Source: an uncultured Elusimicrobiales bacterium (lineage in GTDB: Bacteria; Elusimicrobiota; Elusimicrobia; Elusimicrobiales; Elusimicrobiaceae). Taken from it: DNA of 64,000 nt. The stretch is taken from contig CALVGG010000005.1 of the NCBI GenBank assembly GCA_944327085.1, positions 62,001-126,000 of the forward strand, read 5' to 3'. The stretch's first letter is position 1; each line of letters opens with the position of its first letter. Under the pieces are notes generated by a model. The model was not told where the DNA came from. It saw nothing but the letters and a program-made list of their open reading frames with translations, and made no database searches. Position numbers and translations under genes: made by a program. Shown piece by piece: positions 26,606-43,481 of this stretch.

Positions 26606-27202
26606 CTATTGAACTGGGAAAACACTTCCTGCACTTAAAACCGCACTGTTATAAAGCGCACTGCTACGCACCTGGGTACGGTCTGCATATACATTAACGC
26701 CCGTTGCGGCTTGTATATTAATGGGCTGTAATATATATGGGGTGGAATTGATAAACAAAGCGGTTACGCCGTCTTTGCAAGCTATTTCCACTAAATTATC
26801 CCCTTCTTTAAACGCGGCCGGCCCCAGCCAAAACACGTTGGGCAGCCCCACGGCCATTAATTCCAGCACGTGCCCGCGCTTGGGGGAAGACTGTAAATAC
26901 AGTGCACCGTTAATACTTATCAGCGGGGTAAAGGTGGAAATATTAGCCGGGGTAAAAACAAAAGACAAGCACCAGTCCTTTAAGGCAGAAAACTCTTTGA
27001 CCTTATTGTTTATATCCGTGTTGGAAAACAACAAGCGCACTTTTCCCCCCGCATCCAGGTAGCCCTGTGCTTCTTTGTCATACATGAGGTATTTATTTTG
27101 GTCGGGGCGTATCCACACACACCGCCCCCCTAAATAGGCCCGTTCCATGCTTTTGCCGGCGTAAAAAATTTGTGTAATTTTTTTCCCGTTCAACCAAAAC
27201 AT
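26606..27202 (-). CDS. Putative tail appendage protein, LamG-like
   Basis: A 198-residue phage protein. It opens with MFWLNGKKITQIFYAGK, typical of small virion decoration or tail proteins, followed by a beta-rich domain (about 40-198) resembling a concanavalin or LamG-type fold. The ATG overlaps the fibre stop codon by one base (TAATG), so it is translated with the fibre gene. It may bind host carbohydrate; that is inference only. Confidence 0.5.
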   Translation of the reverse strand: MFWLNGKKITQIFYAGKSMERAYLGGRCVWIRPDQNKYLMYDKEAQGYLDAGGKVRLLFSNTDINNKVKEFSALKDWCLSFVFTPANISTFTPLISINGALYLQSSPKRGHVLELMAVGLPNVFWLGPAAFKEGDNLVEIACKDGVTALFINSTPYILQPINIQAATGVNVYADRTQVRSSALYNSAVLSAGSVFPVQ

Positions 27203-28776
27203 TATTCTTCCTCCTCATACACCAAACAAAGCTGGGTGGGCGGGATATTGGTTCTGCTTTCGTATTGGGTTTGTGTGCCGCTCCACATGCTCACCACGCC
27301 CCCGTTTGCCGCCACCAAATTGGGAGTAATATTAAAGGCAACTATCCATGGGTATTCACGCGCATGGGCCGGTTGGGTTTCTTCCCCGTTATAATGCTCC
27401 CCTAAATTGGCGCTATTGAGTTTCATTTTAAAGGCTTCCCACGTACCGCTGCCGTCATTGCCATAAGTATTTGGGAAACCTTCCTTTTCCAGGGCTCCTT
27501 CGGCTTCGTTATTGTTTCCAAAAAAGCGTCCCAATTTCCCGGTTATTGGGCGCATGGTATCTTTGAAGGCCCCGCGCTTTTCGTCTTCTCGCACGGCCGC
27601 TATAAAACGGCGGTATATGGGCAGGGTAAGTGTGCCGGTTACTTCGTCTATCACATAAAAAGGCACGTGCCCGTGCTCAGCCAGCATTTGGCTGTAAGCG
27701 CTTTGTTCCAGGCAAAGCTCCGGGTGTTTTTTTACAAAATTCCACAAACCGGGGTAATTCTTGTGCGCATCCGTTACGGTTTCCCCGGTCCAGCCCGGAA
27801 GGGCGCCCAGGTTATCCTCGGGCAATTTGCTTTGAGAAAAATATAATTCCCCCACCTGTTTGGGCAAAAATTTATCCAAGCGTTTTTGGGCTTCCTCCAC
27901 GCTGGCTAGTGCCGCTTGCGCGCTGCTTTCAGCAGATGCGGCCGCCTCGGCCGCGCGCTGGGCCACTTCCCCACCGGGCATAGTGAGGGTGTCCCCCCAC
28001 ATAAAAGTAACATTGTCCCCCGTTTGTAAGGCCGGCGTGAATAAAACTTGCTGTCCGTAAGGGTTGCCTTTTTCGGCCAAATCGGGGTTTATTACTTCGG
28101 TATAGTCGGCCGCCGGTATTTTAAGAACCCCGTTTACAAATACTTTTAATGTGTTTGCGTCGGCCAGGTATTTTTTATTTAAATCAAAAGTGCTTAAATC
28201 CCCGTCATAAGGGCCAAAAGCCGTTCCTGCCGTGTAGTCTTCCCGGTGGGCATATAATTTTTCAGCCTGTTCATAAGCGTTTACGGCAGCTTCCAGCGCG
28301 GCCTGGGCTTGCTCTTTGGCTTCGTCTGCCAGGCCGGTAACTTCCCCATACAAGGCGCGTATTTGAGCCACCAACTCTTGGGCGCCCGGGTTTTGCGTGT
28401 CCCCTTCCGGTACCAGCAAAGCACGCTCTAATTGCTCGGCTAACATCTGTTGCGCCATGGTTAGCTTGTCCAGGGCTTGCGTCCATTTTTCGTCCCAAAA
28501 CTGTATGGGTTGGCTTAACGGCACATCGCGCACCACAATCACGCGCCAATTTTCTTTTGGAGCTTCAAATAACCGAAGGGTTTGCCCTTCCACCTCATAA
28601 TCCGTATCTTCGTTTAGTAAGGTCTGTGCGCCCAGCGGGTCGGTTAAAAACACTTTAATTTGATATTTTTTGCCGAACTCCCCGGCCGCATTGGCCAAGA
28701 AGGTAAACGGAACGCTAAACTCGGTGCTGTTTCCGTCCCCCATAAAAACGCCTTTTGCAGTTTCTTGGTTAATCAT
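27202..28776 (-). CDS. Tail fibre protein, T7 gp17-like N-terminus
   Basis: A 524-residue protein whose first 130 residues match the phage T7-type tail-fibre attachment domain: FMGDGNSTEFSVPFTFL, DTDYEVEGQTLRLFEAP, VVRDVPLSQPIQFW. A coiled-coil shaft (about 135-185), a second GDGxxTxF-like beta module (about 190-260) and a long C-terminal domain follow, probably for receptor binding. It lies directly after the polyvalent protein gene, the position of gene 17 in T7. Confidence 0.85.
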   Translation of the reverse strand: MINQETAKGVFMGDGNSTEFSVPFTFLANAAGEFGKKYQIKVFLTDPLGAQTLLNEDTDYEVEGQTLRLFEAPKENWRVIVVRDVPLSQPIQFWDEKWTQALDKLTMAQQMLAEQLERALLVPEGDTQNPGAQELVAQIRALYGEVTGLADEAKEQAQAALEAAVNAYEQAEKLYAHREDYTAGTAFGPYDGDLSTFDLNKKYLADANTLKVFVNGVLKIPAADYTEVINPDLAEKGNPYGQQVLFTPALQTGDNVTFMWGDTLTMPGGEVAQRAAEAAASAESSAQAALASVEEAQKRLDKFLPKQVGELYFSQSKLPEDNLGALPGWTGETVTDAHKNYPGLWNFVKKHPELCLEQSAYSQMLAEHGHVPFYVIDEVTGTLTLPIYRRFIAAVREDEKRGAFKDTMRPITGKLGRFFGNNNEAEGALEKEGFPNTYGNDGSGTWEAFKMKLNSANLGEHYNGEETQPAHAREYPWIVAFNITPNLVAANGGVVSMWSGTQTQYESRTNIPPTQLCLVYEEEE

Positions 28777-28778
28777 AA

Positions 28779-31700
28779 TTACTCTTTATCTCCCGTTATT
28801 TTACCGGCGCGGTTTTGCGTGTAACCCACCGCGCGCAGGCTCCCGCGAACGGGTTTGCCCGTTACAATATCTACCAAGCCGCCGCCCATATTCATAACGC
28901 TTTGCGTGGGAAGGCCGGTATATTTGGCCACGGCCAAAAATACGTTTATAAATTCCATGGTGTCTACCTCGTCGGCATTGACGGTTTTTACCCCCTTGGC
29001 CACATCACGGGTTATATCGTCAAACATCGGCAGGCCCATTTGGCGCGGGGCGGTTAGTTTGCCTTCACTTACCAGGCTGGCGGCATTGTCTACAAAAAAC
29101 CCGGCCACGCCTTCCCCAAACGGGTAAGCGCCAAAAAATTGGCTTACCGGGCTGGTCAGCAGGTTTTTTAAATCTTCTTCCCGGTCGTCATCATCAGCCG
29201 CAAACCATCCCTGGGTTAAAGCGGTGTAAACCATAGGGTTTAGTATGAGGTAAATAAAAGCAGTCTTGGCAAATTTACTTTGGGATATTTCCCCGTTTTT
29301 AAATTGCACATAAGCATCAACCACTTTGCGTACATATTGCAGCTGTTGGTTTTTAAACACCAAAAACATCCGCGTGCCAAAGCTGTCTGCATTGGCCTGG
29401 CCCTGGCTTAAGTGCACCCGCAAACTGCTTTGCAGGGTGCGTGTAGCTTGTTTTTCAAATACCCGGGCGGCTTCTTGCTGAGATAGGCCCTCTACTTCCA
29501 GCAGATATTTCATATAAGGGTATCCGCCAAATATTAAACTGGCTTTATCACCCAAGCGGGTATTAATCAGCATAAAGTTGGTGAATGTATTCCACCGGCT
29601 TTTAATGGGGGCCACTTCGTCGCTGGCCATAGCGCGGGCCGTATATTCGTTCATGCCGCCCATTTCATAACGGGCTTGTATATACGGGCTGGCTTTTAAC
29701 ATAAAATCCGCCGTTTTGCGTGGGTTGGCCAAAGCTTCTGCAAACCATTTTGCCCATAACCCCCAAGGCATGTTTTCCGCAAAGGACACACTGGAAGCAA
29801 ACTGTTTAATACCGGTTATGGGTTTAAGGCCCATAACGGCTTTTACCCAGCCGTTAAACAGTTTATTCATTACAGAATAAAACTCATCCTTAACTTGGGC
29901 TTTTTGCGGGGCTTGTTGGTCTAAAAGCGCCATGAATTTAGAATAAAGTTTCTTGCCGTCCTGTTGCCCAAATTTTTCTAAAAACGCGCTTTCTACATCT
30001 CTATCTTTAAAAATACGCTTATTGGCAGCGTAATTTTCGGCCTCAAAAATAAATTCCCCGGCCCGGCGCAAATGTTTTAAAACCAAATCTATGGGGTTTA
30101 CGATACGCTGGATAACCCGCTGGCTTTGTACACGTTTTTTAATAAAACTGGGTGATTTTGAGTTTTGCACAAATTCCTGTTTTAAATCTATGCTGTCCGT
30201 TACCCGCTCCGTTACGGAAGGGAAATAAAATTCCACTTTCGGCAGTTTAAAACCATAAATGCGCTGGTGTACTTGGCTTTCCTGTTCGTAATGTTTTTCC
30301 ACCAATTCCTGCAGGTTTTTAGCTGCCTGCAAATCCTGCGGGGTTAACCAGTCAAACAAATTTTTCAGCTGGTCTTGGCCATACGCATAATGCAACCTGC
30401 CGGACAGGCCAAAATCCTCCGTACCGTTAGCCGTATCAACAAAGTTATGGTTTTGGTTCCAAATCCAAAAAGTAAGCGCTTCCAAACGGTTAATGGTTTG
30501 CACACGCGGCGCATTGTATGTAACCGGTTTTCCGTTTTTAAACAAGGTTGCTATTACCTCGCCATTGGCCTGGTCTTTCACATAAGCATAGTTTGTCAGC
30601 TGCATGGTGTCTTTTTGCATTTCTGCAATTTTGTCTAAGATTTGCTGAGAAGTCTTTAATTGATAGGCCGTCCCCACGGCGCGTAAAATGTCTTTATTTA
30701 TTTGCGCATTAAAAACGGCTTCTTTAATTTGGTTGGTTTCCGGGGCCAGTTCCTCTCTAAAGTTTATCTTGTGTTTTTTTAACCCCTTGTTTACCGGCTC
30801 CTTTTGCGCTATACTATTGTTAAGAACAGCGCCCAAATCCTGACGACTAAACGTAGGCAGGGTTTGCGTAGCAGCGGAGCCAGTACTAACCTGCCCGTTT
30901 GCATCTGTTCTTTTTTTATTGCCTTTTGGGCTGGTTGCATCCCACCCAGTAAGCAACCACGTTTTTTGTTTTCCGTGCTCATCCAAAGACAAAACAGCCT
31001 CTATATTGCCTTTTTGCAATACCAAAGTTTTTTTGGAAGCAGTAAAACGCTCCACTCTCCCCGCCACAACGGTATCAATAACTTGGGGCAAAATATCCGC
31101 CCCATGTTTTTGGGCAATATGTTGCAGGCCTTTGTTGTTATCGCCCCAAATAAAGGTTACATCGGGGGTACCGCCATATTGCACAAAGTCCGGCCGCAAA
31201 CCGGGCACCGTTTCTTCTTCACTTCCGGCCGCTATTTTTTTAAGCGCCGCCAAAGACTGTTCGGCTCTGCTAGGTAAAGGGTCGCTCTCGTACATGTCCG
31301 TTTCATATTGGCCAAACGCAATGTCTATAAATGTTTGCAAATCTACCCCACCGTGCAGTAAATACGTTACAATTCCTTTGGGCAATTTACGCTCTTTCAA
31401 AGACAAGCAGGCTGCCAAACGTATATTTGCTTCCTGCACGGCGCGGCGCTCACCGTCCAAACGTTTTTGGGCTGCGTCCCCACGTACAGCGGCCAAAGCA
31501 TCTTCATAAAAAGCATGTAAATCCTGCATGGTTACTTCGCCGCCCGGGTCTGCTTTTATCCATAATACGCGGTTGATAAGCGCCTGGAACACACTGGGCG
31601 GATTATCGGGGTCTATGCTTTCTACAGCTGCCTCGTACTGTTGCAGTGCCTCTTGCTGGCTGCCGCCCCATATCTTGGAAGCGTCTTCCAAAAATTTCAA

Positions 31701-34700
31701 CATATACGGCGTATATTTGGCCCGTCTTACGGAGCCTAATTTTTCATAGGCTTTGCGGTTAAATAATGCGCTCAATTTACCGCGCATATATTTTTTATAA
31801 TTACGCTCTTGAATTTTTCTCGCGTGATTAATAAATTCGTTTATGTTTTTTTCCGTCAGCAAGCGGTAGCGCTTGTTGCTTCTGGCCAAAACGGCGCTGT
31901 ACTTGGCCACATCCGCATAGGTAATATGCGGTATGCCGCGCAAAACGGCCTGCATGGCCATTACATATTTGCCGTCTAAATTACTTTCTTTAAGCACTTT
32001 TTCCGCTTTTTCTTTGGCGGCGGCCTGTTCTTCACTCAAAATGCCCATCAACGGCAATTTAAAAAGCGTTTGCTGCGCCTGGCGCACTTCTTCCTGCGCG
32101 GCGGCGGCAATATCGTTAAACCTTTTAAGTAATTCAACGCGCACTTTATCCCAGTTGGTGTCTGGTACGGCCAGCTTGCGTAAATCCCGCTTGCCTTCAT
32201 CCGTCTGGGCCCAGGCAGCTTCCATCTGTTCCAGTATCCCGGTCAACACGTCATGGATTTCCTGCGGCGTTTTGGCGTGTTTAAGAAGTTTTTTCATATC
32301 CTCTTTATGAGCAAGCTGGCGTTTATCCAACTCTGCCATCACGCGCTTTTTAATGCGCAGGGCGTCTTGCTCAAATTTCAGCCGCTTCTTTTCCACCGCA
32401 TCGGCGGATAATTTGGTATTTTCCGCTTCCACCTGTCCGGCCATCGTTTCCAGGTTGGACAGCGTACGCCGCAAAAGTTCCAAGTCTTTGGCTTCCACCG
32501 CCCGGTAGCCCATTTTTTCCAACTGGGCAATACTTTTAAGGGTTTCCTGCGCGGTCTTAATATCCGGGAATATCTGCAAGATAGTGGCCATATTTTCTTC
32601 AAACGCCGCGCGCGCTTGCGCCACCACCTGGTCTTCTATACGGTAAACCTTTTCCCCCTCCAAAGCACGCTGTATCAAATCATACGCCGCCGCTAAAGTT
32701 TCTTCGGTGCTTTCTTCAAACTCCATGTATCCGTGCTTTTGAAGCCATACATCGGGCCGGTCGTCCACCCCACCTTTTTTATCGTAAATTTTGGCGTTCT
32801 TGTAGGCTTCTTTATCTATTTTGCCGGCGTTGGCGTACTCTGCCCCGTGTTTTCGCAAATCTTTCAGCAAATCCTGTTTAGGGGCGGCCGGTTTACGTAC
32901 GGACAGCGTTTTTAACAACTCTTTTATGTCTTGTATGCTCAACCCCTCAAAATCCATTCCTTGCCCACGCTTCATTTGTTCCACCAGTTTTTTAGCCGCG
33001 TCCAACTTACTGCCTATTTTGCTTTTTTGTATCTGTGCCTGAGGGGCCAGCAAGCGGTCAAATATACTTTTTACTTCCGGGGTTATTTTCAAATACTCTT
33101 TGGCCGCCTGATAAATTTCAGCCAGCCACTGGGCAAATTTTTCAAACACGCTTTCCAACTGTTTATTGGGGGCCTTACCGGCGGCCAAATACCCTTCAAA
33201 ACCTTGGGCAAATTTTTCCTGCTGGGGGGTGCTGTAGCGGCCGTTCTCTTCCGGTGCGCCAAGCCATGCGTCCAAATCGGCCGTTAGTTGGGCAAATTCT
33301 TCATCGGCCGATACGCCCCTTGCCCTTGCCAACATGGCAAGCTGCACGTGTGCCAACTCGTGCACGATGGTGGAAGCGTCTCCCTTTTGAAATATTTTGA
33401 TAATAGCCCGGTTGGCTTCTTCGTCTATGGTTACGCTGCCGCGCGGCGCCGGCCGGCTTTGATAATATTCCTGTTTTGCTTGATAATTTTTGTTATATGT
33501 TAAGAGTTTCTCCTTGACAAATTCCTCTTTTCTGCGTATATTATATATAGAGCCTTTAAGGCTATCCTCCTTGAGCAATTGGAGCTCTTGCGGCCGGATA
33601 GTTTTAAGGGCTTTTTCTTCGTCTATATAAATTAAATTTCCCTCTTTGATATTGCTGGCCACAAAACTATTAAAGTTATCTTTGCCATACATACTGGGAA
33701 TAACATTTATTTTCCCTTGAGTATCACGCAAAATAGTAATTACTTGGCGGTTGCTGTTATCCTTAGCGGAAACTACGGCCACCAGGCTGTTTTGGTCCGT
33801 ACGGGATTTGAACACGGCCACCGGGTCCGCTATTAATTGGGGCAAATTTTCTATGTCCTGTATTTTAACGTTATGTTTGCCCTCTGTAATTTTTTTCAAT
33901 ACGTTTACAGATAACCCAAACGGCTTTTCAGCAAAGCCCAAACGCTCATACAGCCCTATTCTTCCAATACGAATAAGCTGCCCTGTTTTTAATGTTCCTG
34001 CCTGGGCTTTTTTCAAATCCTCTTTATAGGTGTTAAGGCTTGTTTGGGAGGGAGCAAACAAGTTTTCCCCTTCCTGCCAAAGCGTGTTGGTATCCGGCAA
34101 AGTATTGACAAAGTCCTCTTTCGTACGTATACTATTTGTAAGGATGTTTTTACCTATGGTACCGGCTTGGATAAGCGGTTCTGGTAAGGACATCCTGTTT
34201 TTGTCTATATACACCACATTGTTTTTTCGTACGGTACTTTCAACAAATTTGTCAAATTTCCCGTGTTCATAAACAGTAGGGATAAAGGTAAAACCATTTT
34301 CTTTTGGAGAAGGTCTTAAAATCGCCACTATTTGGTCTTTTCCTGCTTTTTCGTTCAGTACAGCTACATATGCCCCTGGCTTTGTGTTGGAGCGAAAAAC
34401 GGCAACTGGGTCGGCCAATAGTTTAGGTAAATTTTCCACCACTTCCTGCGGTACATTGTGATTGTGTAAATTTTTATCTGCCTTTAATTCTTCTTGGGTA
34501 AGCAACCCCAGGGCTTTACGAAGGGCCAGTTTGTTTGTTTTTAATTCCTGTTTAGGCAGGCCCAATTTCTCATACAACGGAGGAATTACCCCCATATCCA
34601 CTTTGGTATTATTGGGGGTGTGCTTATCCGAAAGCACCGCTTTTACGTCTGCCTTAAACTTCCTGGCCACGGTTTCGTCCGGGGCAAACAAGTTTTTCCC

Positions 34701-37700
34701 TTCCTGCCAAAGCGTGTTGGTATCCGGCAAAGTATTGACAAAGTCCTCTTTCGTACGTATACTATTTATAGGACTCTGATTATGGAGAGGACGCGATTGG
34801 AGCGGGCCCCATATATCAGAGTCTTTCTCTTTGATATACAGCACCCCACCTTCTTCTGCGGTTCTTCTTACAAAATTCTCAAAATTTCCCTTGTCATATA
34901 CACTGGGAATAAAAGAAAAACCCTCTGCGCCTTTTTTATTCGGGGAGATAGCCGCTATAATCTGTTTTCCTTCGTCATTTGTTGCATCCAAAACCGCCAC
35001 ATACCCGTTCGGATTAGTAGAGTTAGGAGAAGATTTGAACACCGCTTTCGGGTCCGCCACCAGTGCAGGCAGGTTTTCCAACACCTCTTGCGGCACCTTG
35101 TGCAGGTTTCGGCCCGCTTTGCCTGTTGCTTTCAACAGGGTTGTTTTATTGGTTTTCAAACTCCCGTAAGGCAAGCCCAATTTCACATAAATAGCAGGCA
35201 AATTTCCCATGTCAAACGAAGTCCCTGCCGCAACACTTTGGTCAGATAAGGCTTTGCGCACCTGCGCTTTAAACCGCTGGGCCGTCTGCGCGTCCGGGGC
35301 AAACATTTCTTGGCTCTTGACGAACTCCTGCAAACCCGCTATACTATTATCAATACCGCTGCCAACGAGAACCGGCTTTTTATGGCTAGGGCGTTGGAGC
35401 GGTTCATTTTTTGCCCAATTATCTATATACATGGCGGCGGCTTGGTTAAACGTGTCCCCAGTCTTGATTTTGGCCACAATATCCGCTATACTGATATTAG
35501 CAGGACTGCCCAGGAGTTCGCCGCCGTCATTTTTAGATGACGGGAGCAGAGAATTAAAAATAAATGGTTTCTGCGCCTGGGAGCCCTGTTCTTTTTTCAT
35601 CCAAGCGTCAATACCTTTTTCCGTTCCCTTAAATCCAGTAGTAAGTAAAGTATACCCCGGTTGTATTTCCACACTTACCCCATAAAACGTATTCCCCGCT
35701 TTTATTTTAAGTAAAACGGGTACGCCGTCAAAACGGGGCTTTACGCTAACCCCAACGCCTATAATACCGTCTTTCAAACCGGACAGGATATTTTCCCAGT
35801 CCTGGACTGTATTTTTATGTTTATTGTAAGTATGCTTTATAATATCAGACGGCAAACGAATTTCTTCTTCTCCCGCTTGAAACGAATAATAACTCCTGTC
35901 GTCAGAAGCAGATTTCAAAGCGGTATCATAAAAAGCATCCAGCTCTTTTTCTCTGCTTCTATACATGGCGGCGGATTGGTAAAACGTGTCCCCAGTCTTG
36001 ATTTTGTCCACAATTTCCGCTATACTAATAGTAGAAGGCTGACCGGAAATGACGTCCTTGCGTTGCAAGGCTTGGCCCACCCCGATGAAGTGAGGCGCGG
36101 GGGTTCCGGCAGCTTTCTCTATAAGAGAACGACCAGAAATAACGTCCCCGGTTTCCGGGGCTTGACCCCGTCTGAGAGGTGCAGACGTTCTGGCGTTCTC
36201 TTTTTTCATCCACGCGTCCACACCTGTATTTGTAGATTTAAAGAACGTATTTAACCGTATATTCCCGTTGGGGAAAACGGTTATTTCCAGTCCATATATA
36301 CCGCTCGTTCCATTTACTTTCGCCAGTACCCCAACCCCCGGTCCAAAACGCGGGGTAGTTATAGTAATCGCCGCTATATTATCTATATCCGCAAGGCCTT
36401 TTTTCCATTGGGTTGCCGTCATTTCGGGGTGCTTTTTATCGTGCAAAACGGTATCGCTGGGGATTTGTAATTTTACCCCGCTTTGGGTTGTATGGGTATA
36501 GTAGGATTGTTTGCCCCCTTTGTTTTGCTGGGCCGCCTCGTAAAATTTGGCAAAGTCATTGTGAGGGCTCTTATACATAGCCGCGGCTTGATTGTATACA
36601 TACGCTGCGGTCGGGTTTTGATTCGTCCCCAGTATGTTTAACTTCATATAGCGCATTTCTTCCGGGGCAATACCCGTTAAACGGTAAAAAGCCAGTTGAT
36701 TGGCGTGGGCAATCTCGGCCGTTTGTTCGGCCTCTTCCTCGCTCATTCCGGCTTCTTGGGCTTCTTTTTTAAGTTGCTCGCGTGCATCCCATGCGTTATG
36801 CTCCACCTTACGCTGTTGCGCCTGGGTGAGCGTAGCTTTAAAGGTTCCGGCGTCGCGGTCCTCTGCCGTAAGCGGGCTGTTTATCTCGCCTGATACGCTG
36901 CCCAATGCTTCTTTGGTAAAATCTTCGCTTATAGCCGTATTGGCCAGTTCAGTAGCCACTTTATGTGCTTCTTCTTCCTTTACCCCCGCGGCCATTAAAT
37001 TTTTGGCTATGTTCTGGCGGTATACAAAAAAGTTACCCCCAGCCGCCGCGCCGCCGGGAACTCCACCCAAGATAAACGCAATAAATCCCTCATATAACGC
37101 CTGTTTGGCTTTTTCCCGCCATGAAGTATCTTCTACCCCGCCAACATCGTTAATTACGTTACTGCCAATGCTTTGCGTGGCTTCCTGCACGCCCTCAATC
37201 ATTCCGCCGCGCGCCGCACCAATAGCCGCAGCCGTACCCCCTTGCACGCTAAGCGGTTTCTTTTTTATGGACTTTAACGCCTTAGACGTAAACTTATCCA
37301 GTACCCCGTTCACATTTAACAGTTTTAAAAAAAGTTTATCCCCCACAAATTCCGTAGCGGCTATCCAGGCGGCATTGCTTAGCCCCAGTTTATAGGCTTT
37401 CACCGGTTCCACACCGGCTTCTATAGCTTGTTCATAAGTGCCTTGCCCCTCCGCCGCACCAAAAATAGCGCTCATAATAGCTGGGTTACGCGTAATGGCC
37501 AAAGCAGCAATACTGGTAAGCACACTGCCGGCACCACTGCCCAGGTCATACAAAAAGCCGTCTTTTTGCGTTTTTTCTAGTCCGGCGCGTTTGGTAAACA
37601 AGCCCACCACCGCTTTTACTTTGTTGTTAAAATCATCCGCCCATTTTTGGCTTCTTTGGTATTCTTCCTGCGCGCGTTGGCGGTCCGCTTCTGTGGGGAT

Positions 37701-38132
37701 ATACGCACCGCCTGTACCCGCAGCCGCCGCTTCCCCCATTTTATTCATAAGCGCCAACCCCGTTTTAATAGAAAACGCCCCTGCCTGACGCGCCGTATTT
37801 ATCACCGCCGCTTCGGCCCCGCGCCGAAAACTTTCCGGCAATACACGCCGCCAAGGGGTAAGCGCATTTTCTGTGGCACCGGAAAGCACGTTAAAAGAGC
37901 GTTTTTTAAGTTCGCCGGAAACCACTTCTTCCGTCGGCGCGCCCAAGTCTACCATGGCAAAATAATTTTTTTTGGGTTTACCTAAAATCTGTGTATCCGT
38001 AGCATAAAGGATTTCGTCCGCGCGCTTTAAATCTGTATATACCGGTATTTGGTACGAGTCTATCCACACGCTTCTTTTATGCGCGGGTGGTTGTATAGCA
38101 TTCATTGGTGTATTTTGCCGTTCTTCTTTCAT
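28779..38132 (-). CDS. 3117-residue polyvalent internal virion (ejection) protein
   Basis: It occupies the T7 gene 16 position, so it is probably ejected with the DNA. Regions in order: helical N-terminus with hydrophobic stretches (about 200-400); two copies of a toxin-like module (about 524-645 and 724-849, both ending in GVDAWMKKE or GIDAWMKKE); three tandem domains like the phage MuF C-terminal domain (about 924-1537); a zincin-like HELAH motif (about 1580); a long helical region (about 1700-2270); a domain like the phage Barnase/EndoU/colicin/RelE nuclease families (about 2314-2410, GLQHIAQKHG); and a conserved C-terminal part typical of large polyvalent proteins. Toxin and protease roles are inferred from domain resemblance. 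Internal DNA repeats show recent duplication. Confidence 0.85.
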   Translation of the reverse strand: MKEERQNTPMNAIQPPAHKRSVWIDSYQIPVYTDLKRADEILYATDTQILGKPKKNYFAMVDLGAPTEEVVSGELKKRSFNVLSGATENALTPWRRVLPESFRRGAEAAVINTARQAGAFSIKTGLALMNKMGEAAAAGTGGAYIPTEADRQRAQEEYQRSQKWADDFNNKVKAVVGLFTKRAGLEKTQKDGFLYDLGSGAGSVLTSIAALAITRNPAIMSAIFGAAEGQGTYEQAIEAGVEPVKAYKLGLSNAAWIAATEFVGDKLFLKLLNVNGVLDKFTSKALKSIKKKPLSVQGGTAAAIGAARGGMIEGVQEATQSIGSNVINDVGGVEDTSWREKAKQALYEGFIAFILGGVPGGAAAGGNFFVYRQNIAKNLMAAGVKEEEAHKVATELANTAISEDFTKEALGSVSGEINSPLTAEDRDAGTFKATLTQAQQRKVEHNAWDAREQLKKEAQEAGMSEEEAEQTAEIAHANQLAFYRLTGIAPEEMRYMKLNILGTNQNPTAAYVYNQAAAMYKSPHNDFAKFYEAAQQNKGGKQSYYTHTTQSGVKLQIPSDTVLHDKKHPEMTATQWKKGLADIDNIAAITITTPRFGPGVGVLAKVNGTSGIYGLEITVFPNGNIRLNTFFKSTNTGVDAWMKKENARTSAPLRRGQAPETGDVISGRSLIEKAAGTPAPHFIGVGQALQRKDVISGQPSTISIAEIVDKIKTGDTFYQSAAMYRSREKELDAFYDTALKSASDDRSYYSFQAGEEEIRLPSDIIKHTYNKHKNTVQDWENILSGLKDGIIGVGVSVKPRFDGVPVLLKIKAGNTFYGVSVEIQPGYTLLTTGFKGTEKGIDAWMKKEQGSQAQKPFIFNSLLPSSKNDGGELLGSPANISIADIVAKIKTGDTFNQAAAMYIDNWAKNEPLQRPSHKKPVLVGSGIDNSIAGLQEFVKSQEMFAPDAQTAQRFKAQVRKALSDQSVAAGTSFDMGNLPAIYVKLGLPYGSLKTNKTTLLKATGKAGRNLHKVPQEVLENLPALVADPKAVFKSSPNSTNPNGYVAVLDATNDEGKQIIAAISPNKKGAEGFSFIPSVYDKGNFENFVRRTAEEGGVLYIKEKDSDIWGPLQSRPLHNQSPINSIRTKEDFVNTLPDTNTLWQEGKNLFAPDETVARKFKADVKAVLSDKHTPNNTKVDMGVIPPLYEKLGLPKQELKTNKLALRKALGLLTQEELKADKNLHNHNVPQEVVENLPKLLADPVAVFRSNTKPGAYVAVLNEKAGKDQIVAILRPSPKENGFTFIPTVYEHGKFDKFVESTVRKNNVVYIDKNRMSLPEPLIQAGTIGKNILTNSIRTKEDFVNTLPDTNTLWQEGENLFAPSQTSLNTYKEDLKKAQAGTLKTGQLIRIGRIGLYERLGFAEKPFGLSVNVLKKITEGKHNVKIQDIENLPQLIADPVAVFKSRTDQNSLVAVVSAKDNSNRQVITILRDTQGKINVIPSMYGKDNFNSFVASNIKEGNLIYIDEEKALKTIRPQELQLLKEDSLKGSIYNIRRKEEFVKEKLLTYNKNYQAKQEYYQSRPAPRGSVTIDEEANRAIIKIFQKGDASTIVHELAHVQLAMLARARGVSADEEFAQLTADLDAWLGAPEENGRYSTPQQEKFAQGFEGYLAAGKAPNKQLESVFEKFAQWLAEIYQAAKEYLKITPEVKSIFDRLLAPQAQIQKSKIGSKLDAAKKLVEQMKRGQGMDFEGLSIQDIKELLKTLSVRKPAAPKQDLLKDLRKHGAEYANAGKIDKEAYKNAKIYDKKGGVDDRPDVWLQKHGYMEFEESTEETLAAAYDLIQRALEGEKVYRIEDQVVAQARAAFEENMATILQIFPDIKTAQETLKSIAQLEKMGYRAVEAKDLELLRRTLSNLETMAGQVEAENTKLSADAVEKKRLKFEQDALRIKKRVMAELDKRQLAHKEDMKKLLKHAKTPQEIHDVLTGILEQMEAAWAQTDEGKRDLRKLAVPDTNWDKVRVELLKRFNDIAAAAQEEVRQAQQTLFKLPLMGILSEEQAAAKEKAEKVLKESNLDGKYVMAMQAVLRGIPHITYADVAKYSAVLARSNKRYRLLTEKNINEFINHARKIQERNYKKYMRGKLSALFNRKAYEKLGSVRRAKYTPYMLKFLEDASKIWGGSQQEALQQYEAAVESIDPDNPPSVFQALINRVLWIKADPGGEVTMQDLHAFYEDALAAVRGDAAQKRLDGERRAVQEANIRLAACLSLKERKLPKGIVTYLLHGGVDLQTFIDIAFGQYETDMYESDPLPSRAEQSLAALKKIAAGSEEETVPGLRPDFVQYGGTPDVTFIWGDNNKGLQHIAQKHGADILPQVIDTVVAGRVERFTASKKTLVLQKGNIEAVLSLDEHGKQKTWLLTGWDATSPKGNKKRTDANGQVSTGSAATQTLPTFSRQDLGAVLNNSIAQKEPVNKGLKKHKINFREELAPETNQIKEAVFNAQINKDILRAVGTAYQLKTSQQILDKIAEMQKDTMQLTNYAYVKDQANGEVIATLFKNGKPVTYNAPRVQTINRLEALTFWIWNQNHNFVDTANGTEDFGLSGRLHYAYGQDQLKNLFDWLTPQDLQAAKNLQELVEKHYEQESQVHQRIYGFKLPKVEFYFPSVTERVTDSIDLKQEFVQNSKSPSFIKKRVQSQRVIQRIVNPIDLVLKHLRRAGEFIFEAENYAANKRIFKDRDVESAFLEKFGQQDGKKLYSKFMALLDQQAPQKAQVKDEFYSVMNKLFNGWVKAVMGLKPITGIKQFASSVSFAENMPWGLWAKWFAEALANPRKTADFMLKASPYIQARYEMGGMNEYTARAMASDEVAPIKSRWNTFTNFMLINTRLGDKASLIFGGYPYMKYLLEVEGLSQQEAARVFEKQATRTLQSSLRVHLSQGQANADSFGTRMFLVFKNQQLQYVRKVVDAYVQFKNGEISQSKFAKTAFIYLILNPMVYTALTQGWFAADDDDREEDLKNLLTSPVSQFFGAYPFGEGVAGFFVDNAASLVSEGKLTAPRQMGLPMFDDITRDVAKGVKTVNADEVDTMEFINVFLAVAKYTGLPTQSVMNMGGGLVDIVTGKPVRGSLRAVGYTQNRAGKITGDKE
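34054..34767. repeat. 84-bp near-perfect direct repeat inside the polyvalent gene
   Basis: 34054-34137 and 34684-34767 differ at one base and lie exactly 630 bp (210 codons) apart. The encoded peptide joins two MuF-C-like domains (NSIRTKEDFVNTLPDTNTLW). The flanking domains are much more divergent than the repeat. Confidence 0.9.
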
Positions 38133-38151: not shown

Positions 38152-39864
38152 TTACCGTTCATCTTCAAAAAAAATGTCTATCACTTCATTCCCATCTTTT
38201 TTAATGCGCGCGCGCTGGCCGTTCCAGCTGCCTGCTTTATAGCGTTCCACCGCGGTGGAAAGTTCTTTATAATACGCTTCCTTGGGGGCCGTGGGCTCCT
38301 GGGAAAGTTCCATAATACGCCCGTTATAAATGGCCGCGTCCACCACTCCTACCGGCACCCCGTATTTAGCCGCCACAAACTCTTTTCTAACCTCGTCAAA
38401 AATCGGTTCCAAAATTTTTTTATTGTCCCGATATGAATCCGCCAAATTGATATTTCGTTCGGCGGTTTTGCGCATCATATTTTCATACATACCGGCTATG
38501 TCTTCCACCGGAAAATCCATATTCCCTGGGGATTGGGAAAGTTTTTGTAATTTTTTCTGCACCCACTCGTCCCCGCTAGTAGAAAACCAATCGGAATCCG
38601 GCCTTTTTATAATTCGCGTTCCCAAAGCCCGGCGCAAGTTATTTAAGTTTTCTTGCGCTTTTTGGGTGTCTTGCGCCGTAAATGCACCCGATAAAATACG
38701 TGCCCGCAAATCAGCAGCAGCAGCCGCCAACGCCGCCGGGGAATCCAAATCTTTGTTATTTACTTTGTAATCGTCTAATTCATCTCCTATATCAAAAGCG
38801 TCATAGGCGGTTTTACTGGCAGCATAGTTGGCTATTTTCTGTTGGCCCATGCGGCCGGAAGGGTCGTCCAGCAAATCCTCCACAAAGTTTAAGTAAGAGG
38901 AAAACTCCTTGGCGGTTAAATCAATGCCGGCCGCGTTTAATTCTTCCAGCGCGGAAAACATATTTTTGCTTTTCACCTGGAAATCCTGCTGCAAAGCCAG
39001 CGGGTTTTTTTCATAATCGCGCACGGCGGCGTTGTATAAATCTTTTAAGGCAGCCTGGTGGTTTTGGCTTTTTAATTTGTCGGTTTCTTTTTTAGCAGCT
39101 TCTTCCTGCGCTTCTTGCCAGCGCAAGGCGCGGTTTTTCCAGCTCAGCTTTTCTTCCACCGTCAAATTGGTGTATTGGTTCTTATCGTCCATGGGGGACA
39201 CTATTTTCCCGTTTTTATCCTTATAGGCAATTTGGGCCGGGTCCGCGTCAAAAAGCCAATGCAGGCGGGAAACAGTCTTGTCTTTATCGTACTGGCCGGC
39301 AAGTTCCTGTTTTTGAAGCGGGGTAAATCCGCTGAGTTCCAGGTAGCTTTCAAAATCACGGTCCAATTCGTGCTGCACCTCGGGGGCGGCGTAAGCGTAA
39401 TCATACGCTTTTTGCCGCACGGTATCCTGCGCGGTTTGAAAATTGATGCGCGAAAGCAGGTTGATTTTTTTGGCGTCCGTATCATTTTTTAAGGCGTCAT
39501 AATAATTGGCGCCAAAATCCCGCTCCCAACGTTTAAACAGGCGTTCACCCAAATACTCTTTGCCGGTCGCTTTCATTTGCTCCAGCGCGGAGGATACTTC
39601 CGCGTCAAACTGGGTAGGGTCTTGGCTTTGGTCCAAGCGGTTTTGAAGGGCTTTGTATTGGTTGTCCAGCTGCTCCTCAAAATTCTGCATTTTCAGCTGT
39701 TCGCTGCGGGCTTCCTGGCGTTGCAGCTCCTGGCTGATGGAATTTATGGTGCCCGCTAAATTTTGCAGGTTTTGGCCCGCTTGGCCGGGCTGGTAGTTCA
39801 AGTTCTGTTTGGCTCCACGTGGGGCCGCACTGCTCATAATAGGGTTAATTTTCGGTTTATCCAT
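38152..39864 (-). CDS. Internal virion protein, gp15-like position
   Basis: A 570-residue, mostly helical protein rich in Gln, Lys and Glu with no signal peptide or enzyme motif. Its place between the gp14-like and the 3117-residue ejection protein genes matches T7 gene 15, whose product forms part of the DNA-ejection tube. Segments such as WERDFGANYYDALKND and FESYLELSGFTPLQKQ resemble those seen in such proteins. It starts 12 bases after the gp14-like stop. Confidence 0.7.
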   Translation of the reverse strand: MDKPKINPIMSSAAPRGAKQNLNYQPGQAGQNLQNLAGTINSISQELQRQEARSEQLKMQNFEEQLDNQYKALQNRLDQSQDPTQFDAEVSSALEQMKATGKEYLGERLFKRWERDFGANYYDALKNDTDAKKINLLSRINFQTAQDTVRQKAYDYAYAAPEVQHELDRDFESYLELSGFTPLQKQELAGQYDKDKTVSRLHWLFDADPAQIAYKDKNGKIVSPMDDKNQYTNLTVEEKLSWKNRALRWQEAQEEAAKKETDKLKSQNHQAALKDLYNAAVRDYEKNPLALQQDFQVKSKNMFSALEELNAAGIDLTAKEFSSYLNFVEDLLDDPSGRMGQQKIANYAASKTAYDAFDIGDELDDYKVNNKDLDSPAALAAAAADLRARILSGAFTAQDTQKAQENLNNLRRALGTRIIKRPDSDWFSTSGDEWVQKKLQKLSQSPGNMDFPVEDIAGMYENMMRKTAERNINLADSYRDNKKILEPIFDEVRKEFVAAKYGVPVGVVDAAIYNGRIMELSQEPTAPKEAYYKELSTAVERYKAGSWNGQRARIKKDGNEVIDIFFEDER

Positions 39865-39875
39865 AACTTGCCGCC

Positions 39876-40454
39876 TTAAAGAGAAAGTTTTGCTTTCAAA
39901 CTTTTATTGCCCGCACCATAAGAGGTGGCAGAAAAAGTATTATTGTAAGCCTGATTAAAGGCTTCTTTGTTATTGGCCGTAGGGCGTTTTCCGCCTCCCC
40001 AGCCGTAATACTGCGCGGCCGAACCCAGCGTTTGCGCGGCGCCGCCGGCCAGGCTCATGTGTAAATTGAGGCCGCGGCTGTTAGCGGTTTGCTGGGCCAA
40101 ATACCGGTTGTAATTGGCCGAATTTTTATACTGTGCCCATTGGGTTTGGTTTTGGTAGGTAAGGTCTGCCACGTTTTGCAGGGCGTTTTTATGGCTTTGT
40201 GTGGCCAGGCGGTCATAAGTAGGGCCATAAAGTCCGTTTTCCGCCATAGACGCGGTTAAGGAAGCCATACTGGCGCGCACGTTTTTTAAAGCGCTGTCCT
40301 GCGTTATAGCGCCTTCCTGCGCGGTTAAACGGGCGTTGGCCTCGTCCTGCGCGGCATATTGCTTATAGAGGCGTTCCTGTTCCAAATTTTGTACATATCC
40401 ACCCAAAGCACCGGTGGTGTTTCCTACCGCTTGCACAATCCAGCTCATAAGCAC
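39876..40454 (-). CDS. Internal virion core protein, T7 gp14-like
   Basis: A 192-residue protein. The start (MSWIVQAVGNTTGALGGYV) followed by an alanine- and glutamine-rich helical body is characteristic of T7 gp14-type core proteins, which are ejected and form a pore in the outer membrane. GLNLHMSLAGGAAQTLGSAA may be the membrane-active part. The start overlaps the preceding gene by 10 bp. Confidence 0.75.
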   Translation of the reverse strand: MLMSWIVQAVGNTTGALGGYVQNLEQERLYKQYAAQDEANARLTAQEGAITQDSALKNVRASMASLTASMAENGLYGPTYDRLATQSHKNALQNVADLTYQNQTQWAQYKNSANYNRYLAQQTANSRGLNLHMSLAGGAAQTLGSAAQYYGWGGGKRPTANNKEAFNQAYNNTFSATSYGAGNKSLKAKLSL

Positions 40455-40867
40455 CTCGCGTATATATCGTAATCTTGGCCGTTTAAGAATTTTTTAAGCG
40501 TGCCCTCCCGCTCAAAGCCAAGCAGTTTGGCCAAGCGGTGAGCGGGTTTAAAATCCGTTTTTACGGTCATTTCCACCCGTTCTGTCTTATAAATTTCATA
40601 ACAGCGCCGCATGATGCGCACTATGGGCAACATATCACGCCCACAATTTTGCGAAAGCAAACTAACGGCCATACGGCGTTTGGGGCTCAAACATACAAAA
40701 CCGATAACGGCCATTACTTCTTCCCCGTCAAAGAGGGAAAAAAGCACACTGTTCTGCAAACCGCCCAGCAAATCTTCCTGGCGTTGCTCGGCTTGCACTT
40801 GGAGTTTTTCCAAATGGCAAGGCGAAAAACTTTCAATTCGGTTAATCACTGGCCACCTCCACGTCAA
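40445..40867 (-). CDS. GNAT-fold phage protein, gp13 position
   Basis: A 140-residue protein with an acetyltransferase-like pattern: LFDGEEVMAVIGFVCLS, a helix ILPIVRIMRR region, and KPAHRLAKLLGFEREGTLKKFLNGQDYDIY, where the last lines match the GNAT motif for growing from peers (GFEREG). Phages related to T7 carry a small gp13-like gene at this spot, often of this fold. Whether it acetylates anything or is structural is unknown. It overlaps both neighbours. Confidence 0.65.
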   Translation of the reverse strand: MTWRWPVINRIESFSPCHLEKLQVQAEQRQEDLLGGLQNSVLFSLFDGEEVMAVIGFVCLSPKRRMAVSLLSQNCGRDMLPIVRIMRRCYEIYKTERVEMTVKTDFKPAHRLAKLLGFEREGTLKKFLNGQDYDIYARCL

Positions 40868-43481
40868 TAAATAAGGCCAACAAATGCCAGGGCAAAGGCT
40901 CCTGCATTTTTAACACCACGCGCGGGGCGGTGGTATTGGGTGTTTGCTTGGTGGTAACAAATACAGCGGTATTGTTGCCCGGCCAGGCTATTTTTATATC
41001 GCCCGATTTTAACAGGGTGCGTTCGGTTTTGTCCTGTCCATTTCTGAGCCGCGCGGTGTAAATATGTTTGTTTTCGGCCTGGTATAAAAACTGAGCACTG
41101 TTAAGCACCCGGGCTATAATTTGGTTTATGCGGTAACTTTTGGCCTGCCCGCTACTGTTGGCATCTAAATTTAAAGGCATTGGTTCAAACACGGTGAGGT
41201 ATGGCAGCCCCACGGTAATTACGCTGGCGGGTTTATCCAGCGTAATTTGGCCATTTAATACCTGTTTGTTTTTAAAAGGTACCCCGTCCGCCAGGCCCTC
41301 CACCTGGGCCCCTTCCAAATGCTCTAAGCCTTCTATCAGCACGGTAGGGCTTTTTACTTTAAACTGTTTGGCACAGTCCAGGCACCAAGCGTACGTTAAG
41401 TTATAAAGGCTGGTTTCGTCCTCGTTATATTCGGCGGGTACGTCCAGCGGCAAAGGCGGGCGCAAATATTCCACGTTATAAACGTCTTGCCCGTTTATAT
41501 GGCGTTTTACTACAAACCAAACATCGTCAATTTGGCCGTCCGGTGCGGGAATAACCGCCAGGCTTTCAAAAGTGCCTTGGGTAGTATGGCGGTGGAAGGC
41601 CCTTACATTTTGTGTCTTATTGTAAGTAAGGCCCAGCAGGCTGCCGTCGTTTAAAATCGTCCATATCAAACGGTCCGGTTCGTACTGCAAATCCCAGTCT
41701 TTTATGCCGCGCGCCAGGTAATTTTGGGCCAGCAAACTAAGTTCTTCCGGTTCGTAGCGGTCTGTGTCGGAGCGGTACGCCAAATCATACATGGCTTTTC
41801 CTTTGGCGCCCAAAAAAAGCAAACTGGAACCCAATAACACCGGGCGTTGGGCCGGGCTTCCAATTAAACAAATAATGTCGTAAGCTACGTTGGTTGGGCC
41901 AAACGCTTCGCTGGTGGTTTGTGGGCGCACTTCCAGCACGCTGCCCTGGGTGCCTATATACAAATAATCCTGTACGGCGGCCCAGCTAAGCGTGTTTAGT
42001 TCCGTCAAAAAATACAGGTTAAAAGCGTTGTCGTCCAATACTTCGCCAAAGGTTAAATCTTCAAAGTTTTCATAATCGCCGGTTTTTCCAAAAAGTGCAG
42101 CCGGGCCTTCTTGGGTATCCATAAGAAGTACCAGGCGGTCCTTGAAGTATCTTAATCCGCTGGCATATACCCCGCCTTGGCCCAATACGCCCAGCTCCCA
42201 TTTATAGGTGCCTTTGTCCAATTCTTTGGGGAAGTTCTCATGCACATACACCTTTACTTGGTTTTCACTCACAAACTGGGTAATTACCCCCCAGCCGTAA
42301 CCGGAGTGCAAATATTTCCAAGATATTTTCCCGTCGCTTTCGCTGCCTTCGCTGTGGGTAGGTTTTACACTGCCGCAAGTTCCCTCAGAGATAGCTTCAT
42401 AAAACTTACCGTCGCTTTTTAAAATATCCCCCGCCTTTACTTCTGTGCGGCCCTGGTACCAATACTCCACGCCTTCGTTCTGCATCGTTAAACGTATCAA
42501 GCGGCCTTCGTCCGCCAGGCTAAAGGCGGAAAAATTGCTCTCTGAGCCAAACGTCCAGGTGGTTTCTTGCCAGCCGTCGTCGCGGCCGTCCGTACGGTGG
42601 CGCCAACAGCGCAATTTTATGCTTTTCTCGCTGTAACGGCGTTCCAGGGTGGTATCGGCCAATTTAATGGCGCTGTATCCGGCACCCAGCACATCGGCAC
42701 GTATACCGCATTGTACGCTGTTAATGGCTTTTACAATGTACTCGTTATAGTTGTTTTGGTTGTGTTTATCCCCGCGCGAGTAGCGGCATAACAAAGTATC
42801 CTCAAAGTATATCTCTACGGCTACCCCGTCAATACTTCCGCCATAGCCAACATTTTCTGTGGCCAGCCAAGGCCCCCAGGAAGGGTGGTCTATTTCTATC
42901 ACCCCGCCGGCGCTGCTGGTTATCGTAACCGTTCCGCTGGTTCCGGCCACGCTCATCATTTTTTCGGTGTCTGCATTTAAACGGCACCAGGGGCCGCCTT
43001 TTAAATTAACCTGTTCAAAACGCCAGTCATAATCCCCATAGCGTGATAACTTTTGCAGCGGGGTGGTTTCATGGGCAAAATACAGCACGTCGCCAATTTG
43101 CAAATAAGAAACTTTCTTGCCTTTGGCCCCGGTCAGTTGGTCTATGGAATAAGGGGTTAAAATCTCATAAGGGGTTTGGTCCGCCAGGCAAAGTAAAGCA
43201 TGGTTTTTATAAACGCGCATGGCGTAGTCCGTAAACTCCAATATATAGGCCACGTTTTCGTTTAGTTTAAACGGGATTAGTACCGCCGGTAAATTATTGC
43301 GCGTTTGGGCCACATAGGCCGTACCGCCGCGCCGTTTCACGCCGCCAAAGGCCGTAAGCACGGCATTTTGCACCGTGCGGCAAGAGTACGGGTAAAGCTG
43401 CAAATCGGCCCGGCTTTCCATTTCCGGTGAAACAAGCCCGTTGTTAAATTGGTTCAAAGCCACACGCGTTTTAAAAGCCAT
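40842..43481 (-). CDS. Tail tubular protein B, T7 gp12-like nozzle
   Basis: An 879-residue virion protein. I chose the ATG at 43481 because GGGAGGG lies just upstream and the product then begins MAFKTRVALNQFNNGLVSPE, the usual start of this family. FGGVKRRGGTAYVAQTR and FKLNENVAYILEFTDYAMRVYK are conserved parts. It forms the tail nozzle, attached to tail tubular protein A. It overlaps gene A by 11 bp and the GNAT-fold gene by 26 bp. Confidence 0.88.
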   Translation of the reverse strand: MAFKTRVALNQFNNGLVSPEMESRADLQLYPYSCRTVQNAVLTAFGGVKRRGGTAYVAQTRNNLPAVLIPFKLNENVAYILEFTDYAMRVYKNHALLCLADQTPYEILTPYSIDQLTGAKGKKVSYLQIGDVLYFAHETTPLQKLSRYGDYDWRFEQVNLKGGPWCRLNADTEKMMSVAGTSGTVTITSSAGGVIEIDHPSWGPWLATENVGYGGSIDGVAVEIYFEDTLLCRYSRGDKHNQNNYNEYIVKAINSVQCGIRADVLGAGYSAIKLADTTLERRYSEKSIKLRCWRHRTDGRDDGWQETTWTFGSESNFSAFSLADEGRLIRLTMQNEGVEYWYQGRTEVKAGDILKSDGKFYEAISEGTCGSVKPTHSEGSESDGKISWKYLHSGYGWGVITQFVSENQVKVYVHENFPKELDKGTYKWELGVLGQGGVYASGLRYFKDRLVLLMDTQEGPAALFGKTGDYENFEDLTFGEVLDDNAFNLYFLTELNTLSWAAVQDYLYIGTQGSVLEVRPQTTSEAFGPTNVAYDIICLIGSPAQRPVLLGSSLLFLGAKGKAMYDLAYRSDTDRYEPEELSLLAQNYLARGIKDWDLQYEPDRLIWTILNDGSLLGLTYNKTQNVRAFHRHTTQGTFESLAVIPAPDGQIDDVWFVVKRHINGQDVYNVEYLRPPLPLDVPAEYNEDETSLYNLTYAWCLDCAKQFKVKSPTVLIEGLEHLEGAQVEGLADGVPFKNKQVLNGQITLDKPASVITVGLPYLTVFEPMPLNLDANSSGQAKSYRINQIIARVLNSAQFLYQAENKHIYTARLRNGQDKTERTLLKSGDIKIAWPGNNTAVFVTTKQTPNTTAPRVVLKMQEPLPWHLLALFIDVEVASD

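What the first reader, a model, noticed from the sequence alone, without database searches (positions are those of the whole stretch)
28779..38132. A 3117-residue ejected protein carrying several toxin-like and one protease-like domain
In the T7 gene 16 position, the protein combines ejection-type helical regions with MuF-C-like domains (three), a duplicated toxin-like module, a HELAH zincin motif and a Barnase/EndoU/colicin/RelE-like domain. Polyvalent proteins are known from other phages, but this density of repeated effector-like modules in a podovirus core protein is remarkable. It may be cut after ejection and deliver several effectors.
Basis: partly seen in the sequence, partly recalled or inferred. 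Interest (0 to 1): 0.65.

Follow-up and report, generated by a model that had tools for sequence, protein, structure and literature searches.

The report
Modular phage protein carrying nuclease cassettes
A prophage in an Elusimicrobia-type bacterium encodes a giant protein, in the place of the proteins that short-tailed phages inject, that strings together interchangeable RNase-like modules and a protease-like domain; the class is known, but one module and the short motif between modules look new.

Summary
Window 28779-38132 (minus strand) encodes one uninterrupted 3117-aa protein in the T7 gene 16 position of a podovirus-type prophage. It is a phage polyvalent protein, a class described in 2017 (PMC5512222). 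Its C scaffold and zincin are homologous to BPP-1 Bbp10; T7 gp16 shares the position but no detectable sequence. Cargo: a diverged pair of a module without Pfam match (A1, A2; a decayed third copy follows), three MuF_C domains over Pfam's cut-off, one PBECR1-like domain below it. MuF_C (8 of 8), PBECR1-like (6 of 6) and module A (8 of 9) keep the His + Ser/Thr pair of BECR nucleases; models of A2 and the third MuF_C look RelE/BrnT-like at middling scores. Zincin ligands are intact, its fold support weak. Relatives carry other polyvalent cargo and swap modules as near-identical cassettes. New here: a motif, [FYLW][FYW]Q, marks module junctions (58 sites in cargo, 7 in scaffold plus zincin, 21 proteins); my searches found no paper on it. 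It could be a processing site for the embedded zincin (inferred). Effector density is high but not unprecedented. The prophage itself is truncated.

The parts
28779..38132 (-). giant polyvalent ejection-type protein, 3117 aa
36693..38132 (-). N scaffold, residues 1-480
36168..36644 (-). module A copy 1, residues 497-655; His564/Thr629
35553..36035 (-). module A copy 2, residues 700-860; His767/Thr832; folded alone (710-860)
35358..35504 (-). decayed third copy of module A, about residues 877-925, core missing
34803..35345 (-). MuF_C module 1, residues 930-1110; His1011/Ser1077
34173..34730 (-). MuF_C module 2, residues 1135-1320; His1225/Thr1286
33543..34100 (-). MuF_C module 3, residues 1345-1530; His1420/Ser1480
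32973..33500 (-). zincin-like domain, residues 1545-1720; HELAH 1591-1595, Glu1639
31278..32915 (-). helical scaffold H, residues 1740-2285
30738..31286 (-). module B, PBECR1-like, residues 2283-2465; His2338/Thr2395
28782..30740 (-). C scaffold, residues 2465-3117, Bbp10-type
36588..36596 (-). junction motif YNQ, residue 513 (loose form)
35976..35984 (-). junction motif FYQ, residue 717
35442..35450 (-). junction motif FNQ, residue 895 (loose form)
34704..34712 (-). junction motif LWQ, residue 1141
34074..34082 (-). junction motif LWQ, residue 1351
33459..33467 (-). junction motif YYQ, residue 1556, just before the zincin
38152..39864 (-). gp15-position protein
   Evidence: position; kept in relatives
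39876..40454 (-). gp14-like internal virion protein
40445..40867 (-). gp13-position protein
   Evidence: and position
40842..43535 (-). tail protein B
43471..44049 (-). tail protein A
44127..45011 (-). major head protein
45219..45698 (-). truncated capsid scaffold protein
27202..28776 (-). tail fibre-type protein

Best explanation
A polyvalent ejection protein of a podovirus with T7-like gene order, related to BPP-1, that infects Elusimicrobia. A Bbp10-type scaffold (N, H and C parts) would be packed with the core proteins and ejected with or ahead of the DNA. Cargo sits in at least three docks: between N and zincin, inside H, and between H and C. In this copy the intact cargo is six BECR-type RNase-like domains (two A, three MuF_C, one PBECR1-like). 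In the cell they would cut RNA early in infection: of the host, of an RNA-based defence, or of a rival phage. The zincin beside the cargo most likely processes the chain, perhaps at the aromatic-aromatic-Gln motifs at the junctions, so that the domains act separately. Modules are exchanged between phages as cassettes through shared linkers. Shown: architecture, homology to Bbp10, catalytic signatures, gene order, module exchange, motif enrichment. Inferred: ejection, RNase activity, targets, proteolysis.
For: MuF_C x3 over cut-off; His + Ser/Thr pair kept in 8 of 8 MuF_C, 6 of 6 B, 8 of 9 A; A2 and MuF_C models nearest RelE/BrnT-type toxins; zincin ligands in 14 of 14; C scaffold and zincin homologous to Bbp10; gene order of T7, BPP-1, AF, CP2, vir555; relatives carry ART-PolyVal, LPD1, LPD3, LPD5, LPD13, RadC; cassette exchange with G058; junction motif 58 cargo against 7 scaffold plus zincin, 0 of 500 shuffles reach 58.
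Against: Fold matches are middling: no Foldseek PDB match at E <= 0.001 for either model, pLDDT 57.4 and 65.7. Profile comparisons of A, B and MuF_C with each other are not significant. B is below PBECR1's cut-off, and 3 of its 4 more distant relatives scanned show no PBECR1 match. The zincin model is all helix and its first fold matches are helicases. In P0001 alone the loose motif is not enriched. Outside this family the motif is sparse. Nothing here shows packaging, ejection or activity.
Confidence: 0.8

Rival explanations
1. The junction motif is only the end of the preceding fold plus a recombination seam. Cassettes are swapped through repeated linker DNA, and the giant protein is ejected and works uncut.
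For: Identical DNA between window and G058 ends at the motif (residues 717 and 1353) and a 70-nt perfect repeat covers two linkers. ART tails end in IYY-type letters also where Gln is missing (4 of 16 lack it). PMC5512222 section 8 recalls that N4 virion RNA polymerase, which has such a domain, is packaged uncut.
Against: Q is the most skewed of 20 possible last letters, and the motif is depleted in scaffold (7 against 20.3 expected). It stands next to unrelated modules. Codons at 26 non-redundant sites vary much as in the background, so the constraint is on protein, not DNA. [FYLW][FYWN]Q lies in the 40 residues shown before the zincin core in 12 of 24 proteins against 7.7% of random 40-mers.
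Confidence: 0.45
2. The MuF_C, A and B domains serve in packing or as RNA or DNA binders in the virion, not as RNases.
For: Phage Mu's MuF carries a PBECR domain called inactive in PMC5512222 section 19.
Against: The His + Ser/Thr pair is kept in 8 of 8 MuF_C, 6 of 6 B and 8 of 9 A; in A the exception, L034, lacks both. The modules are dispensable and exchangeable between relatives, unlike a structural part.
Confidence: 0.12
3. The gene is a relic or a captured host gene of a dead prophage, with no present function as an ejected protein.
For: No portal or terminase beside it; the scaffold gene is cut at the integrase. The only matches to those genes in G000 lie on another contig. Host capture is proposed in PMC5512222 section 32.
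Against: A 9.4-kb frame without a stop. The C part differs from G013 by 15 synonymous and 1 non-synonymous change and from G058 by 4 and 3, so any decay is recent. G013, with portal and terminase genes, carries a relative in the same place.
Confidence: 0.4

Closest known systems
Phage polyvalent proteins (PMC5512222), e.g. Helicobacter jhp1044 with several PBECR domains
   Same: Many effector-type domains and a zincin in one chain beside virion genes; duplicated and shuffled PBECR-type domains
   Different: Bbp10-type podoviral scaffold with docks; module A without Pfam match; Gln motif at junctions, not mentioned in the passages and sections I read
Bbp10 of Bordetella phage BPP-1 (2052 aa) and the giant proteins of phages AF and CP2
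   Same: Gene position, C scaffold, zincin
   Different: In the tblastn search of residues 118-3117 they matched only around the zincin; the A, MuF_C and B cargo was not matched there
T7 gp16
   Same: Gene order 12-13-14-15-16-17
   Different: No detectable sequence homology in the N and C scaffold comparisons; no Pfam transglycosylase found in residues 1-500
MuF polymorphic toxins of temperate phages (PMC5576092)
   Same: Phage-encoded toxin-like modules exchanged on a virion protein
   Different: They rest on the MuF packaging-module domain; here Pfam finds only MuF_C, a different domain

Membership tests
Phage polyvalent protein | several effector-type domains in one polypeptide | tested here: met
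   relatives
Phage polyvalent protein | encoded among virion genes | tested here: met
Phage polyvalent protein | carried in the virion and delivered into the host | not testable with these tools
   needs virion proteomics
MuF_C (PF18819) | score over Pfam cut-off | tested here: met
   65.5, 63.5, 74.6 bits; cut-off 27.6
MuF_C / PBECR as active RNase | His in the helix and Ser/Thr in a late strand | tested here: met
   8 of 8
MuF_C / PBECR as active RNase | RNA cleavage | not testable with these tools
   bench assay needed
PBECR1 (PF18809), module B | score over Pfam cut-off | tested here: not met
   18.5 of 27.6 bits; L068 relative 16.3; L041, L043, L048 no PBECR1 match
PBECR1 (PF18809), module B | His and Thr pair | tested here: met
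   6 of 6, 3 of them identical in protein
BECR fold, module A | helix plus four to five strands like RelE/BrnT | tested here: inconclusive
   topology fits, Z up to 6.7, model confidence low, no Foldseek match at E <= 0.001
BECR fold, module A | His and Ser/Thr pair | tested here: met
   8 of 9
Zincin-like metallopeptidase | HExxH and a later Glu | tested here: met
   14 of 14 aligned; L038 has one extra residue between the His
Zincin-like metallopeptidase | three-stranded sheet with active-site helices | tested here: inconclusive
   model all helix; a zincin match only at Z 4.2
Bbp10-type podoviral protein | zincin and C-terminal homology, same gene position | tested here: met
T7 gp16 | sequence homology | tested here: not met
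   hhalign E 0.23 (C) and 0.13 (N); H not compared
MuF polymorphic toxins | MuF (SPP1 gp7-type) domain | tested here: not met
   Pfam finds only MuF_C
MuF polymorphic toxins | adjacent immunity gene | not tested
   neighbours are virion genes by position and PHROG; no immunity search made

The most novel reading that the evidence does not exclude
The aromatic-aromatic-Gln motif is a cleavage code: an ejected phage polyprotein that its embedded zincin cuts at module junctions, freeing six small RNases at once, with the motif selected against inside the scaffold. This would be a phage parallel to the Gln-directed processing of animal-virus polyproteins (recalled), and would explain how cassettes can be swapped freely.
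Probability: 0.33. Interest if true: 0.75.

Novelty: new variant of a known kind. Interest (0 to 1): 0.5.

Why it matters
Polyvalent proteins were predicted to be cut by their own zincins, yet the sections I read name no site. The junction motif gives a concrete, testable one, and module A adds a likely nuclease family that Pfam, PHROGs and NCBIfam did not recognise. If right, phages that inject one giant protein deliver many separate enzymes, and borders of unknown effectors could be found from the motif.

Tried and rejected
P0001 in viral contigs: no pattern match. BLASTP of the protein against itself listed only the full self-match; iterated profile search showed the duplicates. Module A in 50,697 phage records: no match. 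hhalign of A, B and MuF_C with each other: not significant. Loose motif in P0001 alone: 7 against 4.0 expected, p 0.10; only the family-wide test is significant. Motif in other named giant proteins: LS06 six sites, one an LFQ before YHGTP; BPP-1 four, one an FYQ before the zincin; BcepMigl one in 4616 aa; Tunturi_5 none; of the two H. cinaedi proteins one has none and one has one. So it is not general to polyvalent proteins. Prohead protease as the cutting enzyme: considered because PHROG labels relatives of the scaffold 'protease'; dropped because Pfam of the 3 relatives scanned Phage_T7_Capsid, below cut-off, and the third nothing. T7 gp16 homology: not found. Weak Pfam rows (LysM2_NFP, DUF4388, RsgI_M and the like) judged chance. 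NCBIfam found nothing near a cut-off in 8 slices, MuF_C copies 1 and 2 left out.

Rows dropped before the motif counts: L056 (near copy of L055); fragments L032, L042, L046, L047, L049, L050; and the proteobacterial L051-L053 (reported). In L041, L043 and L048 everything outside the scaffold and zincin matches was counted as cargo.

Full report
WHAT IS THERE. Residues 1700-3117 have matches in 20 of 340 genomes of the same phylum, the window's own included. The 7 of 7 named genome records with a related C scaffold are Elusimicrobia-type MAGs by title. The gene is one open frame of 3117 codons on the minus strand. From the capsid onwards the order is capsid, tail A, tail B, gp13-position, gp14-like, gp15-position, giant protein, tail fibre type. 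That is the order of T7 (which shows genes 12-17) and, for the stretches seen, of AF, BPP-1, CP2 and vir555; BPP-1 has one internal virion gene fewer before its endolysin gene.

ARCHITECTURE. Iterated profile searches over relatives give N scaffold 1-480; A1 497-655; A2 700-860; MuF_C 930-1110, 1135-1320, 1345-1530; zincin 1545-1720; helical scaffold H 1740-2285; B 2283-2465; C scaffold 2465-3117 (limits rounded by me). MuF_C copies score 65.5, 63.5 and 74.6 bits (cut-off 27.6); B matches PBECR1 at 18.5 (cut-off 27.6). B also matches the DarB-like protein of BcepMigl (E 8e-8) and Helicobacter prophage proteins (best E 5e-6, most near 0.09). Module A matched none of 50,697 phage records, and two IMG/VR scans gave one and the same locus, L060. 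A third copy of A, its core missing, lies at about 877-925.

CATALYTIC SIGNS. The BECR pair (His in the N-terminal helix, Ser/Thr in a late strand; PMC5512222 section 19) is present in 8 of 8 MuF_C, 6 of 6 B, three of them identical in protein, and 8 of 9 A; the ninth, L034, lacks both. AlphaFold2 of A2 (5 sequences, mean pLDDT 57.4, core blocks about 65-84) gives helix, four strands, helix. VIA-align puts toxins of the RelE/BrnT kind or toxin-antitoxin entries in rows 1-4 (Z 6.7, 5.9, 5.5, 5.2) and in at least 21 of 50 rows by title, next to unrelated rows such as cystatins and NTF2-like designs at Z 5.2 and below. Foldseek finds nothing at E <= 0.001, its top rows being designed proteins. 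The model of MuF_C copy 3 plus zincin (14 sequences, pLDDT 65.7) finds BrnT (Z 5.8) and RelE (4.9) for MuF_C. For the zincin part helicase helices come first (Z 6.2); anthrax lethal factor, a zincin, comes at Z 4.2. No PDB match passes E 0.001. In BFVD 7 matches pass, three of them named MuF C-terminal proteins and one a polyvalent ART. Zincin His, Glu, His and the later Glu are invariant in 14 of 14, L038 having one extra residue between the histidines, a variant the 2017 paper also reports (section 8).

SCAFFOLD AND DOCKS. C is homologous to the C-terminus of Bbp10 (hhalign E 7.9e-7; 121 bits by iterated search, with AF 123 and CP2 23), the zincin to Bbp10's (E 6e-24); that region of Bbp10 served as a seed of the CLCA_X set in PMC3650047 (passages). 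T7 gp16 shows no homology to N or C. Of 16 relatives with both H and C matches the H-C gap is 43 residues or less in 13, holds B in 2, and holds 539 other residues in 1; L055 and L056 are near copies. LPD13 sits inside H of L036 and L034, with a MuF_C match in L034 as well. Other cargo in relatives: ART-PolyVal, LPD1, LPD3, LPD5, MuF_C, RadC. B also occurs in L041, L043 and L048, in which no N, H or C match was listed.

EXCHANGE. Against G058: N 99.6% identical, A1 100%, A2 35.6%, MuF_C copy 2 99.5%, copy 3 97.8%, H about 1740-2036 46.6%, H 2030-2285 78.5%, B 100%, C 99.5%. Copies 2 and 3 are in reversed order, and of copy 1 only its first 22 residues match separately. Against G013 N is 27.2% and C 99.8%. 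Identical DNA ends at TF (residue 717, inside FYQ) and at TLWQ (1353), and a 70-nt repeat covers linkers 1122-1145 and 1332-1355. The MuF_C copies are 37-51% identical to each other; dN/dS is 0.21 and 0.22 in two pairs, with dS above 2 and so rough, and could not be computed for copies 1 and 3.

JUNCTION MOTIF. Over 21 family proteins [FYLW][FYW]Q occurs 58 times in 27,816 cargo residues and 7 times in 24,671 scaffold-plus-zincin residues; [FY][FY]Q 39 and 1. Other last letters: E 36/19, N 38/16, K 45/27, D 39/34; reversed motif 25/18. Q is the most skewed of the 20. Shuffles expect 19.5 in cargo (0 of 500 reach 58) and 20.3 in scaffold (500 of 500 reach 7). 38 of the 58 are non-redundant, and 20 of 21 proteins have a cargo site. 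53 other structural proteins of these phages have 23 in 24,662 residues. In 13 proteins the density within 15 residues of a Pfam stretch edge is 9.5 per 1000, inside 1.1, elsewhere in cargo 2.3 (10, 3 and 27 sites; sites are partly homologous, so the p of 0.0004 is optimistic). ART tails end in aromatic-X-Gln in 12 of 16. In the 40 residues shown before the zincin core [FYLW][FYWN]Q stands in 12 of 24 proteins, AF, BPP-1 and CP2 among them, against 7.7% of random 40-mers of the same proteins; the looser [FYL]xQ stands in 17 of 24 against 30%. Codons at 26 non-redundant sites: CAA/CAG 19/7 against 1632/832, TAT/TAC 31/5 against 1449/589, TTT/TTC 10/6 against 1919/407; no single DNA word is kept. 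In P0001 alone the loose motif is not significantly enriched. In other giant proteins it is mostly sparse.

STATE OF THE PROPHAGE. It is truncated: the scaffold gene keeps 159 aa against 244-277 in relatives whose gene is not cut by the locus end, and it abuts an integrase. G013 has a portal-type adaptor and both terminase genes. G000 has one match each to portal (27%) and large terminase (54%), on another contig.

WHAT IS KNOWN. PMC5512222 (abstract, passages, sections 8, 19, 32, 33) defines the class, proposes zincin self-processing, and reports PBECR mosaics; 'linker' does not occur in it and 'cleavage site' only in its reference list. In PMC10386132, PMC8954989 and PMC5576092 the word 'polyvalent' does not occur (passage searches). 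PMC9239159 (passage) mentions a 2986-residue gp16 like Bbp10. PMC5694885 and PMC10052503, on prohead proteases, were seen in the search listing only. Searches listed no paper on the junction motif; only the listed rows were looked at.

JUDGEMENT. A new variant of a known kind. The processing reading is the part most worth testing.

Noticed in passing
window 45219-46716: The capsid scaffold gene keeps only its C-terminal part (159 aa) and overlaps the start of an integrase on the other strand; portal and terminase genes are missing.
   Followed up: partly
window 35358-35504: Decayed third copy of module A: its first letters (FNQAAAMY) are joined to its last (IDNWAKNEPLQ) with the core missing.
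   Followed up: partly
L041, L043, L048: Module B sits in three other proteins without the window protein's N, H or C scaffold matches.
   Followed up: no
L036:13129-13611 and L034:9109-9696: LPD13 is inserted inside the helical scaffold of two relatives, in L034 together with a MuF_C match.
   Followed up: no
window 17885-23242, minus strand: 1785-aa protein beside the prophage without any Pfam match at E <= 0.01.
   Followed up: no
L106:7630-8463 and relatives: PHROGs labels relatives of the scaffold 'protease' while Pfam calls two of three Phage_T7_Capsid below cut-off; the PHROG label may be wrong.
   Followed up: partly
G000:C2:121949-128722: Another phage-type region in the same genome, with a large terminase (54% identical to G013's) and a portal-type protein (27%).
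   Followed up: no
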